In this document: positions 25,172-28,334 of the stretch, in pieces
Numbering within the stretch: the stretch's first letter is position 1
How the letters are laid out: each line of letters opens with the position of its first letter
Assembly: GCA_025362585.1 (NCBI GenBank)
Contig: JANYFR010000010.1
Span: 1-48,003, forward strand
DNA length: 48,003 bases
DNA from: Acidimicrobiales bacterium
GTDB taxonomy: Bacteria > Actinomycetota > Acidimicrobiia > Acidimicrobiales > RAAP-2
Direction: 5' to 3'
Program-made: the position numbers and the translations under genes
The notes under the pieces: model-generated
What the model saw: only the letters and a program-made list of their open reading frames with translations
What the model was told of the DNA's origin: nothing
Database searches by the model: none

Positions 25172-25489
25172 ATGTTCAATGAGATTCCAACACGGATCGC
25201 CCAGCGGATGCACGACCTGGAAGAGCGGGACTCGAAGGACCGCGTCGACGGGACATCGACTGCGGCGCCTGCGCCAAGTCCCCCCGAAACTGGGCGCTTC
25301 ATTGCCCTTTGGGCGGCGTCGGCACCGTCGGGCGCAGTGGTCGAGGTCGGGACAAGTGCCGGATACTCCACACTCTGGCTGGCTCTACCGTGTCGTGCCA
25401 CCGGTCGCACGCTCACCACCTACGAGATCCTCGCGGACAAGGCGCAACTCGCCCGTCGAGTTCGTCAAGCGCAACGTCCCTCGACCTAG
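25172..25489 (+). pseudogene. Truncated O-methyltransferase
   Basis: The 105-residue product matches only the first half of a class I O-methyltransferase of about 210 residues. It has the opening PPETGRFIALWAASAPSG, SAM motif I VVEVGTSAGYSTLWL, then TGRTLTTYEILADKA. It stops shortly after the second strand, without the acidic metal-binding motifs. Its TAG shares a CTAG with the stop codon of the convergent Cdd1-like gene. It is probably non-functional. Confidence 0.75.
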
Positions 25490-25749
25490 TCCTTCCAGTG
25501 CCACCACTTCAACAGTTCGGGGTCGATGGCGCCGTCGTCACTCACGACAAAGTAGCGTGCGCCGCGAAAGGTGTACAGCACGCAGCGGTCGGTCGGACCA
25601 TCGAGGTGCTGGAGCCGGTCGTAGAGTTCCTCGGGCGTCACGTCCAGCAAGTCCGACGGCACCTCAATCCCGAGACGACGGAGGTCACGAGCGATCGCCG
25701 GTCCGACGCCCGGGAGGTCTTCCAACCGCTCACGAGAGTGCGTCTTCAC
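25486..25749 (-). CDS. Cdd1-like helix-hairpin-helix protein
   Basis: An 87-residue protein with a helix-hairpin-helix at LEDLPGVGPAIARDLRRLGI, then PSDLLDVTPEELYDRLQHLDG and CVLYTFRGARYFV. This matches the Cdd1 (pathogenicity locus) family, small proteins of unknown role with a nucleic-acid-binding motif. The GTG start has no Shine-Dalgarno. A -10-like ACTCTA (25771-25776, TAGAGT on this strand) lies 21 nt upstream. It is divergent from the VOC gene. Confidence 0.78.
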   Translation of the reverse strand: MKTHSRERLEDLPGVGPAIARDLRRLGIEVPSDLLDVTPEELYDRLQHLDGPTDRCVLYTFRGARYFVVSDDGAIDPELLKWWHWKD

Positions 25750-26410: not shown

Positions 26411-28183
26411 TCAGTGAACCGTGAACGATTTGCTCGACGCCACGGGGAGAAACGCGTCGTCACCCGAGTACTGACCACTCGCCACGTGAGCACCCTTGCT
26501 CAACCTTTGCTTCGACGTGCATGAGGCCGAGCCGTTGGTGACGGCGACACTGCAGTAACGCACTCTCCCTAAGGAGAATGACACCGTGCCGGTGGCCGAC
26601 GCAGCGAGGCCGGTGGCGACGAAACGCAGTGACGATGATGTCACACTTCCACGCACGCGGGTCGTGACGACCACGGACACGTGCATGGTCGACGTGACCT
26701 TGGTGTACGTCTCGTTGACGACGAATGGCTGGAAGGCGCCCGACGCGTCGCGGTAGACCCCACCAGCGCCGCAGTTGCCCGGCGACGTGCACCACACCGC
26801 TAACGTCGATCCGTTGGCACCGACATTCAGCCCCGCCGTGCCCGGGGTCTCGATCGCGGAGGCCCAGTGGCCCCCAGCGAATTGGGTGACGAAGGCCTGC
26901 GAACTCTTGGTCGTATCCAAATAGATACCTCCGGCGATGCAGTTGCCGCCCGACGAGCAGGAGACGTCGGTGACGTCGGCTCCCCCACCCGCGTTCAACA
27001 CCGCGCTGCCCGGAATTTCGAGCGCTGAACCCCAGGAACCGTGCGCTTCATTCAGCACAAAGGCCTGGACGTGACCCAATGCGTCGGTGTAGTGTCCCCC
27101 AGCGCTGCAGTTGCCGTTTGACCAGCACGAGAGACCGTTGAGCGTCGCGTCACCGCCAATGTTCAAGCTCAAGGTGCCCGACGCTGGCACGGCGCTTTTC
27201 CACGTGCCCACGACCTCATTCGCGACGAACGCCTGCAGGTGGCTCGAGCCGTCCGTGTACTCGCCAACGGCACTGCAGTTTCCCGCCGACCAGCACCTCA
27301 GGTTGTTGACCGTGGAGTTGCCGCCCAGGTTGAGCGTCGAGATGCCCGGAACTTCGATCGCGTTGCTCCAGGTACCGTTCACCTCGTTGACGACCAGGGA
27401 CTGCTGGTGGTTCGACGCGTCGACGTAGTTCCCCCCAGCACTGCAGTTCCCCGTCGATCGGCACGAGATCTCGAAGACGGTCGCGGACCCTCCGACGTTC
27501 AACAGCGCCGATCCCGGCATCTGGATCGCCGTCGACCAGATGCCCGCGACCTCGTCGGCGACAAAAGCCTGGTATTTGCCCGCCGGGTCGGCGTAGTACC
27601 CGCCGGCCCGACAGTTCCCCCTTGAGGGACACGAGACCGAGAATGTGGTCGCCGCACCCATCGCGTTTAAGAGTGCGGTGCCCGGAACTTCGATGGCGTT
27701 GCTCCAGGTACCGTTCACCTCGTTGACGACGAAGGCCTGAGTGTTGCTCGCTCCGTCGGTGTAGTAGCCCCCCGCGGCGCAGTTGCCGCCGGTACCACAC
27801 GACACCTCATTGACGAGCGCGGTGCCGCCAGCGTTGAGGGCGCCCAACCCAGGTATCTCCATGGCGGTGCCCCACGTGCCGTTGACGGCGTTCACGACAA
27901 AGGCCTGCTGATGATTGAACTGGTCCTTGTAGATGCCCGCGGCGCTACAGTTGCCGTTCGACCAGCACGACACGCTGGCGACCGCACCCTGGCCGGCGGT
28001 ATTCAATTGCGATATCCCCGGCACCTCGATCGTCGGGCCCCACGTGCCGTTGACGGCGAGGGTGCGCAGTGCGAAGGGCGCGCGACGTGACAGGTCGCTC
28101 GCGCCGCCGACGTCGCCGAACGTCGTCATAATAAGTTGCGACATTGAGAGGAGAGCCAGCACGGTAACGGTCCTGCGGAACAT
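26411..28183 (-). CDS. Exported protein with eight 56-residue repeats and an Ig-like C-terminus
   Basis: A 590-residue protein. A signal peptide covers about 1-25. Residues 48-495 are eight consecutive repeats of exactly 56 residues, each starting at a Trp (48, 104, 160, 216, 272, 328, 384, 440). The consensus is W-x2-AIE-x-PG-x3-LN, then a cysteine pair (VSCxSxGNC), AGGxYxD and QAFVVNE. The tail (about 505-590) resembles a bacterial Ig-like domain with GTVSFS and YSGDDAFLPV. The Cys pair in every repeat suggests one disulfide each. A beta-propeller or cell-surface adhesive role is possible but unproven. GAGGA precedes the ATG; a GTG at 28195 is an alternative. Confidence 0.85.
   Translation of the reverse strand: MFRRTVTVLALLSMSQLIMTTFGDVGGASDLSRRAPFALRTLAVNGTWGPTIEVPGISQLNTAGQGAVASVSCWSNGNCSAAGIYKDQFNHQQAFVVNAVNGTWGTAMEIPGLGALNAGGTALVNEVSCGTGGNCAAGGYYTDGASNTQAFVVNEVNGTWSNAIEVPGTALLNAMGAATTFSVSCPSRGNCRAGGYYADPAGKYQAFVADEVAGIWSTAIQMPGSALLNVGGSATVFEISCRSTGNCSAGGNYVDASNHQQSLVVNEVNGTWSNAIEVPGISTLNLGGNSTVNNLRCWSAGNCSAVGEYTDGSSHLQAFVANEVVGTWKSAVPASGTLSLNIGGDATLNGLSCWSNGNCSAGGHYTDALGHVQAFVLNEAHGSWGSALEIPGSAVLNAGGGADVTDVSCSSGGNCIAGGIYLDTTKSSQAFVTQFAGGHWASAIETPGTAGLNVGANGSTLAVWCTSPGNCGAGGVYRDASGAFQPFVVNETYTKVTSTMHVSVVVTTRVRGSVTSSSLRFVATGLAASATGTVSFSLGRVRYCSVAVTNGSASCTSKQRLSKGAHVASGQYSGDDAFLPVASSKSFTVH
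26699..28042 (-). repeat. Eight tandem 168-bp coding repeats
   Basis: DNA counterpart of the 56-residue protein repeats. The period is constant, without a single codon of length variation, while the nucleotide sequence has diverged between copies. Confidence 0.85.
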
Positions 28184-28334
28184 TGTCTTCCTCACTAGGC
28201 GATCACCACTTCGACAGCTGCCGCTCCACCGGGGAATCTACACGGTGACCGCACCTTTGACGTAGTCGCTTCGACCGCAATGCGACATGCCTACGGTGAT
28301 CGGTCCGAACGGTCGCGGCGTCGTCGTCTAGAAA

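What the first reader, a model, noticed from the sequence alone, without database searches (positions are those of the whole stretch)
26411..28183. Exported protein built of eight exact 56-residue repeats, each with its own cysteine pair
Eight conserved tryptophans sit exactly 56 residues apart and every repeat carries SCxxxGNC-like cysteines. The DNA copies have diverged but the length never varies, so the period is structurally fixed, as in beta-propellers or solenoids. An Ig-like domain ends the protein. I do not recognise the repeat as a named family.
Basis: partly seen in the sequence, partly recalled or inferred. Interest (0 to 1): 0.55.

Follow-up and report, generated by a model that had tools for sequence, protein, structure and literature searches.

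The report
Disulfide-stapled eight-bladed exported propeller protein
An uncultured actinobacterium appears to export a ring-shaped protein made of eight similar blades, each probably stapled by its own disulfide bond; the shape is a common one, but the repeat family is not named in the catalogues searched, and it most likely binds something outside the cell.

Summary
The gene at 26411-28183 (minus strand) encodes a 590-residue, probably exported protein with eight repeats of exactly 56 residues, each with one conserved Trp and one C-x5-C pair, then an Ig-like domain. AlphaFold2 with a 57-row alignment folds the repeats into a beta-propeller (pLDDT 92-98). The best structural matches are WD40 rings, several of them eight-bladed (blade numbers recalled).

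Relatives show what is fixed: not the 56-residue length, which varies, but the number eight. Of 64 complete reading frames, 57 have eight repeats and two have sixteen. Of 576 repeat hits, 572 hold the cysteine pair; the other four are partial hits.

The window protein's repeat reaches no Pfam or NCBIfam cut-off. Local profile links through a sister repeat lead towards Asp-box/BNR propellers, but the Asp-box motif itself is absent (0 of 8 blades).

No charged or histidine residue is invariant over the 57 rows, so an enzyme is less likely. Best reading: an extracellular binding scaffold, perhaps glycan-binding; the ligand is unknown. The fold is ordinary. The unnamed family, the Cys pair in every blade, and the nearly interchangeable blades are of moderate interest.

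The parts
26411..28183 (-). Gene for the whole protein (590 aa, ATG start; GTG at 28195 is the alternative)
   Evidence: ORF list; ribosome-binding-like GAGGAAG at 28193-28187
28094..28183 (-). Probable export signal, Sec-like: Arg pair then hydrophobic stretch (residues about 1-30; cleavage site not predicted)
   Evidence: Sequence and hydropathy; low-confidence in the model, pLDDT 28-35; no signal-peptide predictor was available
27881..28048 (-). Repeat 1 (56 aa), C-x5-C; its W strand precedes the first long strand
27713..27880 (-). Repeat 2 (56 aa), C-x5-C
27545..27712 (-). Repeat 3 (56 aa), C-x5-C
27377..27544 (-). Repeat 4 (56 aa), C-x5-C
27209..27376 (-). Repeat 5 (56 aa), C-x5-C
27041..27208 (-). 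Repeat 6 (56 aa), C-x5-C
26873..27040 (-). Repeat 7 (56 aa), C-x5-C
26705..26872 (-). Repeat 8 (56 aa), C-x5-C; its last long strand is not followed by a W strand
26417..26683 (-). Ig-like C-terminal domain (Big_3_5-like), residues 501-589, seven predicted strands, own Cys pair
   Evidence: Pfam PF16640 E 3e-7, 31.3 bits versus cut-off 35.5; DSSP of the model

Best explanation
The protein is exported and folds outside the cytoplasm into an eight-bladed beta-propeller with an Ig-like domain behind it. Each 56-residue repeat supplies three long strands plus a short Trp-bearing strand. The N-terminal W strand probably completes the last blade and closes the ring (velcro closure, inferred). In each blade the C-x5-C pair sits at the turn between the first and second long strands, where a disulfide would staple the hairpin (inferred). 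The ring most likely works as a non-enzymatic, multivalent binding scaffold, possibly for glycans, at or near the cell surface (inferred, ligand unknown). Shown here: the repeats, the number eight, the conserved Cys pairs, a predicted propeller, no curated family over cut-off. Inferred: export, disulfides, velcro closure, binding role.
For: Model: mean pLDDT 89.5, pTM 0.82, block means 92-98 over residues 51-490, with nearly the same strand pattern in all eight repeats. VIA-align 2 ranks TBLR1 first (Z 30.3, 319 residues, 2.9 A) and Fbw7 next (Z 28.1-28.8); both are eight-bladed WD40 rings (recalled). Foldseek's two best are the lectins PLL5 and PHL, with integrin, BT4663 and sialidases below. 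Repeat number: 57 of 64 complete ORFs in loci L022-L091 have eight and 2 of 64 have sixteen. All 16 Cys are invariant in the 57-row alignment, whose rows were chosen for having eight hits. Of 576 repeat hits 572 hold a Cys pair and the other 4 are partial; by column, 569 of 569 blades with letters at both places are Cys-Cys. The genome has a VKOR, which can drive disulfide formation (89.3 bits, over cut-off). No charged residue or His is invariant or nearly invariant over the 57 rows. Partner domains seen in relatives fit an extracellular place: Big_3_5 in 6 of 57 rows, fn3 in 4, TIG in 2, Ricin_B_lectin in 1 (rows cut at most 85 residues after the last repeat); 1 of 5 window-family ORFs scanned at full length has an OmpA domain.
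Against: The fold rests on prediction, and no coordinates were handed out to measure Cys-Cys distances, closure or pockets. Foldseek's TM-score over the query is only 0.39 for the best row, which has another ring size. Thioredoxin_4 (DsbA-like) gave no match in this genome, so the disulfide pathway is only half seen. The model of a sixteen-repeat relative was poor (mean pLDDT 58.0; 12 rows, of which only 2 cover the second half). With the first profile those two relatives counted 13 and 15, and some others 7 or 9; they became 16 and 8 only after the profile was rebuilt. Five of 64 complete ORFs have neither 8 nor 16 repeats. In the six closest sequences several Glu and one Asp are invariant, so a function limited to close relatives could use them. 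Nothing identifies a ligand: lectin similarity is of fold only (10-14% identity), and the window gene has no conserved neighbours in the loci searched. Export rests on sequence inspection.
Confidence: 0.7

Rival explanations
1. An enzyme on a propeller scaffold, such as a sialidase-like, arabinanase-like or lyase-like protein acting on glycans.
For: Sialidases and GH43/GH62 enzymes are among the Foldseek rows. One relative carries a second propeller that matches the Vgb lyase family. Several Glu and one Asp are invariant among the six closest sequences.
Against: No Asp, Glu, His, Arg or Lys is invariant or nearly invariant over 57 rows. The window-type blades are nearly interchangeable, whereas propeller enzymes need differentiated catalytic residues (general knowledge). 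No catalytic family reached its cut-off on the window protein.
Confidence: 0.12
2. An open beta-solenoid or rod-like adhesin in which the repeats stack without closing.
For: Regular repeats and fixed period in the window protein.
Against: The repeat number is eight in 57 of 64 complete relatives and sixteen in 2, whereas an open stack would be expected to vary freely. The model and fold matches are propellers.
Confidence: 0.03
3. The cysteine pairs bind a metal or serve as redox centres rather than forming structural disulfides.
For: Sixteen invariant cysteines; one pair per repeat would give eight equivalent sites. No Thioredoxin_4 match in the genome.
Against: A probably exported protein and a VKOR in the genome favour disulfides. 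PfCyRPA, a six-bladed propeller, has sequential disulfides within five blades (PMC5349852, passages read).
Confidence: 0.07

Closest known systems
Asp-box (BNR) beta-propellers: sialidases, sortilin/Vps10, YCF48-like (PF02012, PF13088, PF14870, PF15902)
   Same: W-bearing hairpin after the third long strand of each blade. A protein in locus L071 (9104-11179) combines C-x4-5-C pairs with Asp-box-like motifs and is over the cut-offs of PSII_BNR, Sortilin-Vps10, BNR_2 and BNR.
   Different: At the Asp place (W minus 5) the window has Glu in 5 of 8 blades, Ala in 2, Phe in 1, and Gly at W minus 3 in 1 of 8 (read). Known Asp-box rings are listed as 6-, 7- or 10-bladed (PMC2716378, passages read). 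No BNR row for the window protein at E up to 10.
Sister 'C-x5-C-x-AVG ... EHWNGTKW' repeat (L049 5456-6793), unnamed
   Same: hhalign local probability 93.2 to the window repeat over 28 columns around the Cys hairpin, against at most 8.3 for ten column-shuffled controls. No Pfam match at E up to 0.01. In the two phylum searches both queries hit some of the same places, such as G228:C188 and G141:C10.
   Different: The link is partial: forced to global alignment the probability is 49.7. Spacing 50-53 and seven pairs in the one example.
PLL/PHL lectins of Photorhabdus
   Same: Best Foldseek rows; symmetric propellers with repeated sites between blades (PMC6943638, passages read).
   Different: Seven blades, 10-12% identity, TM-score over the query at most 0.39; no Cys pair per blade is described in the passages read.
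PfCyRPA of Plasmodium
   Same: Non-enzymatic propeller with sequential disulfides within blades and one Asp-box (PMC5349852, passages read).
   Different: Six blades, one of them without a disulfide; a eukaryotic protein.
WD40 rings TBLR1, Fbw7, Rsa4, Sqt1
   Same: Among the best VIA-align 2 matches, Z 24.6-30.3; eight-bladed (recalled).
   Different: 7-12% identity; intracellular protein binders (recalled); shared fold only.

Membership tests
Beta-propeller fold | Sequential four-stranded blades arranged as a ring | tested here: met
   AlphaFold2 model, three long strands plus a short W strand per repeat; the VIA-align 2 rows are propellers by their names. Prediction, not experiment; closure is inferred.
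Beta-propeller fold | Eight blades per ring | tested here: met
   Eight repeats in the window protein, in 57 of 64 complete relatives, and sixteen in 2. The direct 2 x 8 model test was inconclusive.
Asp-box (BNR) propellers | Motif S/T-x-D/N-x-G-x-T/S-W/F/Y (or the short form S/T-x-D/N-x-x-x-W/F/Y) | tested here: not met
   No Asp or Asn at W minus 5 in 8 of 8 window blades, nor at W minus 4 (read). Glu is 85% of letters in the matching column of 570 blades. The review says only Asp or Asn occurs there in known structures.
Asp-box (BNR) propellers | Motif lies between third and fourth strand of the blade | tested here: met
   The W hairpin follows the third long strand in each repeat of the model.
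Asp-box (BNR) propellers | Sequence-profile relationship | tested here: inconclusive
   Local hhalign: direct 49.8 over 21 columns; through the sister type 93.2 (28 columns) and 92.8 (44 columns). Global: 5.3, 49.7, 60.1. Controls at most 8.3 local and 1.1 global. BNR was not among the families listed for the 57 rows.
DUF5980 (PF19410) | Score over the gathering cut-off of 27.1 bits | tested here: not met
   25.5 bits for the window protein; matched at E up to 0.01 by 3 of 57 rows.
PQQ, NHL, Kelch, WD40 and RCC1 propeller families | Pfam match | tested here: not met
   None among the window protein's three rows up to E 10. Of 57 rows, 1 each matched NHL, Reg_prop, Kelch_3 and Vgb_lyase at E up to 0.01; in L063 the NHL, Reg_prop and Vgb_lyase matches lie after the eight repeats.
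PLL-type lectins | Sugar binding | not testable with these tools
   Only fold similarity.
Bacterial Ig-like group 3 (Big_3_5) | Score over the gathering cut-off of 35.5 bits | tested here: not met
   31.3 bits, E 3e-7; 6 of 57 rows match, best E 2.1e-13. Probably a divergent member.

The most novel reading that the evidence does not exclude
The protein represents an unnamed, actinobacterial, disulfide-stapled branch of the Asp-box propellers in which the Asp-box was lost and one disulfide per blade took over its stapling role, the ring size was fixed at eight, and one subfamily kept its blades interchangeable so that the ring offers up to eight near-equivalent binding sites: a secreted, multivalent lectin-like or adhesin-like ring, while a sister subfamily in the same genomes froze its blades position by position for a different, constant role.
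Probability: 0.28. Interest if true: 0.5.

Novelty: new variant of a known kind. Interest (0 to 1): 0.36.

Why it matters
It puts a predicted fold and a simple rule (eight blades, one Cys pair each) on a repeat that reaches no Pfam or NCBIfam cut-off in the window protein and that recurs in uncultured actinobacteria, many of them from bog, palsa and fen samples by their record names. The contrast between two subfamilies, one with nearly interchangeable blades and one with position-specific blades, is a natural test bed for how propellers are amplified from single blades and then differentiate. A disulfide-stapled, near-symmetric secreted ring would also be a robust binding scaffold.

Tried and rejected
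A search with the single window protein in genome contigs found no relatives; an alignment of six sequences found 70 loci. No relative was found in viral contigs. The PDB sequence searches found nothing for the single protein and one chance-level row for the profile (E 0.15).

DUF5980 was considered as the family name and rejected: below its cut-off and matched by only 3 of 57 rows. Weak rows such as Maf-like, Coleoptericin, CDGP, DM9 and YadA_anchor and the single-member rows were not pursued.

A conserved gene neighbourhood was sought as a clue to function. ORFs of window 15000-42000 outside the gene have relatives in at most 3 of 70 loci. The paralogue subfamily lies near 2-oxoacid dehydrogenase genes, but on the opposite strand in the three representatives looked at, so this was not used as evidence of function.

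The sixteen-repeat relative L077 was folded to test for two rings of eight; the test is inconclusive. Lectin identity was kept only as a possibility, since WD40 rings score higher (Z 30.3) than the lectin row CV39L (Z 20.3) in VIA-align 2. Recent homogenisation of the window's own blades was considered and rejected: third codon positions between blades are only 0.47 identical at a GC3 of 0.82.

Literature: in the listings of searches I saw no paper that by its title concerns this repeat family; two returned none. Only passages of four papers were read. PHROGs and PADLOC were not scanned.

Full report
What is there. The ATG at 28183 is the better start, because a GAGGAAG lies at 28193-28187 just before it. 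The protein has 590 residues: a probable export signal, eight repeats of exactly 56 residues (window 28048 down to 26705) and an Ig-like end domain. The eight G-x-W motifs and eight C-x5-C pairs keep the period exactly. Identity at lag 56 over residues 46-493 is 0.515, against at most 0.133 in 2000 shuffles. Blades are 43-57% identical in protein and 50-65% in DNA; codon position 3 is 0.47 identical against 0.62 and 0.68 at positions 1 and 2, so the copies are old and selection has kept the protein.

Known families. For the window protein Pfam gives the end domain (Big_3_5, 31.3 bits, cut-off 35.5), DUF5980 below its cut-off and a chance row. NCBIfam gives one weak irrelevant row. Over the 57 alignment rows the Pfam model matched most often is Big_3_5, in 6; the most frequent NCBIfam model is matched by 2. 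The single protein matches no PDB chain by sequence and the profile one chance-level chain. The repeat is therefore unnamed in these libraries; PHROGs and PADLOC were not scanned.

Relatives. The window's genome (2.09 Mb, 64 contigs) holds one further copy on contig C58, 37% identical over query residues 68-492; its 484-residue frame has eight repeats and no Ig-like match. Of 41 genomes searched, 25 have a match: 23 of 25 in the same genus, counting the window's own, and 2 of 16 elsewhere in the order. Across the phylum 13 of 396 have a match. A scan of named genomes gave 70 loci. By my count 29 of the 70 titles say Acidimicrobiaceae (many named bog, palsa or fen) and 9 Streptosporangiaceae; the rest include Solirubrobacterales, Nocardiopsaceae and unclassified actinobacteria. 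Loci L003 and L022 lie on contigs of the same length, 39281, so that genome of the window's genus is probably an Acidimicrobiaceae MAG, and so, by inference, is the window's.

Eight is the constant. I scanned ORFs in the loci with a profile of the window's repeats, then rebuilt it twice from the hits. One search counted, in L022-L091, 67 ORFs that do not touch a locus end and 10 that do. I removed three of the 67 on reading them, because they carry other repeat types (L036_11, L049_32, L071_47). Of the remaining 64, 57 have eight repeats and two have sixteen. The other five have 7 (L038), 6 (L046), 5 (L055), and 3 and 5 full repeats in two overlapping frames of one locus (L081), which add to eight and look like a frameshift. 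The sixteen-repeat ORFs are two genes of one genome (L077, L085); with the first profile they counted 13 and 15, and several others counted 7 or 9 before the rebuild. L029/L030, L047/L048 and L051/L052 gave the same repeat positions and look like near-copies, so there are fewer than 57 independent cases. Spacing between successive Cys pairs ran from about 43 to 75 in the rows shown. Pereira and colleagues report that WD40 blade counts peak at 7 and 14 (PMC9218822, passages read); 8 and 16 here would have the same meaning.

Structure. AlphaFold2 on 57 rows (the window plus 56 relatives, all chosen for eight hits) gave mean pLDDT 89.5 and pTM 0.82, with block means of 92-98 over residues 51-490. 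Each repeat has three long strands, a short W-bearing strand pair and a helical turn. The first W strand (residues 47-48) precedes the first long strand, and the last three long strands (459-492) are followed directly by the Ig-like domain, so the N-terminal strand probably completes the last blade. VIA-align 2 ranks TBLR1 first (Z 30.3, 319 residues, 2.9 A), then Fbw7, Rsa4, CylK and Sqt1. Foldseek ranks PLL/PHL lectins first, with TM-score over the query of at most 0.39, then integrin, BT4663 and sialidases among others; in the viral library it lists phage and giant-virus proteins. A sixteen-repeat relative gave a poor model (mean pLDDT 58.0), so whether it makes two rings was not shown.

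Cysteines. All 16 are invariant in the 57 rows. Of 576 repeat hits in the selected ORFs (the window's plus those of L022-L091, four ORFs dropped, one of them, L071_18, needlessly), 572 hold a Cys pair and the four others are partial hits. By column, 569 of 569 blades with letters at both places are Cys-Cys. The profile was built from Cys-bearing repeats, so blades that lost both could have been missed. In repeat 2 the first Cys (129) lies near the end of one long strand (121-131) and the second (135) at the start of the next (134-142), so a disulfide would staple that hairpin (inference). The genome has VKOR but no Thioredoxin_4 match. PfCyRPA shows that a propeller can carry a disulfide in nearly every blade.

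Kinship. Two other repeat types turned up in the same loci. L049 5456-6793, beside a window-type gene, has 'C-x5-C-x-AVG ... EHWNGTKW' repeats. L071 9104-11179 has C-x4-5-C with Asp-box-like motifs and is over the cut-offs of PSII_BNR, Sortilin-Vps10, BNR_2 and BNR. Local hhalign gives 93.2 between the window type and the first (28 columns), 92.8 between the first and the second (44 columns), and 49.8 directly (21 columns); forced to global alignment the values are 49.7, 60.1 and 5.3. Ten column-shuffled controls reach at most 8.3 locally and 1.1 globally. By the published consensus the window repeat is not an Asp-box repeat: no Asp or Asn at the key place in 8 of 8 blades. So it resembles Asp-box propellers and is indirectly linked to them, but fails their defining motif. 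A search with the first sister protein matched 26 of 296 genomes of the phylum, but not all of these are the sister type: the window genome's own match is its C58 paralogue.

Blade exchange. In the paralogue subfamily (20 proteins picked by me, 190 pairs) same-position blades are 0.527 identical against 0.331 for others, and the best partner is at the same position in 1373 of 1520 cases (chance 190). In the window's subfamily (9 proteins picked by me, 36 pairs, including the near-copies L029 and L030) the values are 0.552 against 0.514, and 84 of 288 (chance 36). For the window itself against nine relatives the best partner is at the same position in 14 of 72 cases (chance 9). Window-type blades are therefore nearly interchangeable: either their rings were built or evened out about when the lineages split, or a strong common consensus hides their order. 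Two relatives cut by contig ends have median blade identity of 0.86 and 0.84, signs of recent amplification.

How it works. Over 57 rows only Cys, Gly, Trp, Ala and Pro are invariant or nearly so; among the six closest sequences some Glu, Gln and one Asp are too. Partner domains include Big_3_5, fn3, TIG and Ricin_B_lectin and OmpA. The window gene stands among unrelated genes (amidase, Cdd1-like, glyoxalase, MFS) without conserved neighbours. The best reading is a secreted, rigid, disulfide-stapled binding ring. Glycan binding is plausible but unproven. After checking against the calls I lowered the main confidence from 0.72 to 0.70, raised the enzyme rival from 0.10 to 0.12 and lowered the novel case from 0.30 to 0.28, because the Asp-box link is local only and close relatives do share invariant Glu.

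Noticed in passing
L002 (own genome C58) and loci such as L056, L057, L060, L061, L064-L070, L073, L074, L076, L078, L080, L086-L088: A paralogue subfamily with eight position-specific blades. In 17 to 21 of the 70 loci the flanks hold gene clusters whose representatives are 2-oxoacid dehydrogenase E1 and E2 genes. Not checked in the window's own genome.
   Followed up: partly
L049:5456-6793: Sister repeat protein (C-x5-C-x-AVG ... EHWNGTKW) without a Pfam match at E up to 0.01, convergent with a window-type gene; its query matches 26 of 296 genomes of the phylum, some through window-type genes. Deserves a family model.
   Followed up: partly
L071:9104-11179: Protein that combines Cys pairs with Asp-box-like motifs, a possible evolutionary bridge.
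   Followed up: partly
L053 and L058: Window-type genes cut by contig ends, with median blade identity of 0.86 and 0.84, signs of recent amplification.
   Followed up: no
L047 (CAJCJA record): Record titled Candidatus Saccharibacteria, but L047 gives the same repeat positions as an Acidimicrobiaceae bog MAG (L048); the title may be wrong.
   Followed up: no
L081:5881-7427: A window-type gene split over two overlapping frames (3 and 5 full repeats), an apparent frameshift.
   Followed up: no
L038:3970-7689: Two window-type genes in tandem, the first with 7 repeats and the second with 8.
   Followed up: no
window 25486-25749 (-): Small Cdd1-like protein (77.9 bits) near the gene.
   Followed up: no
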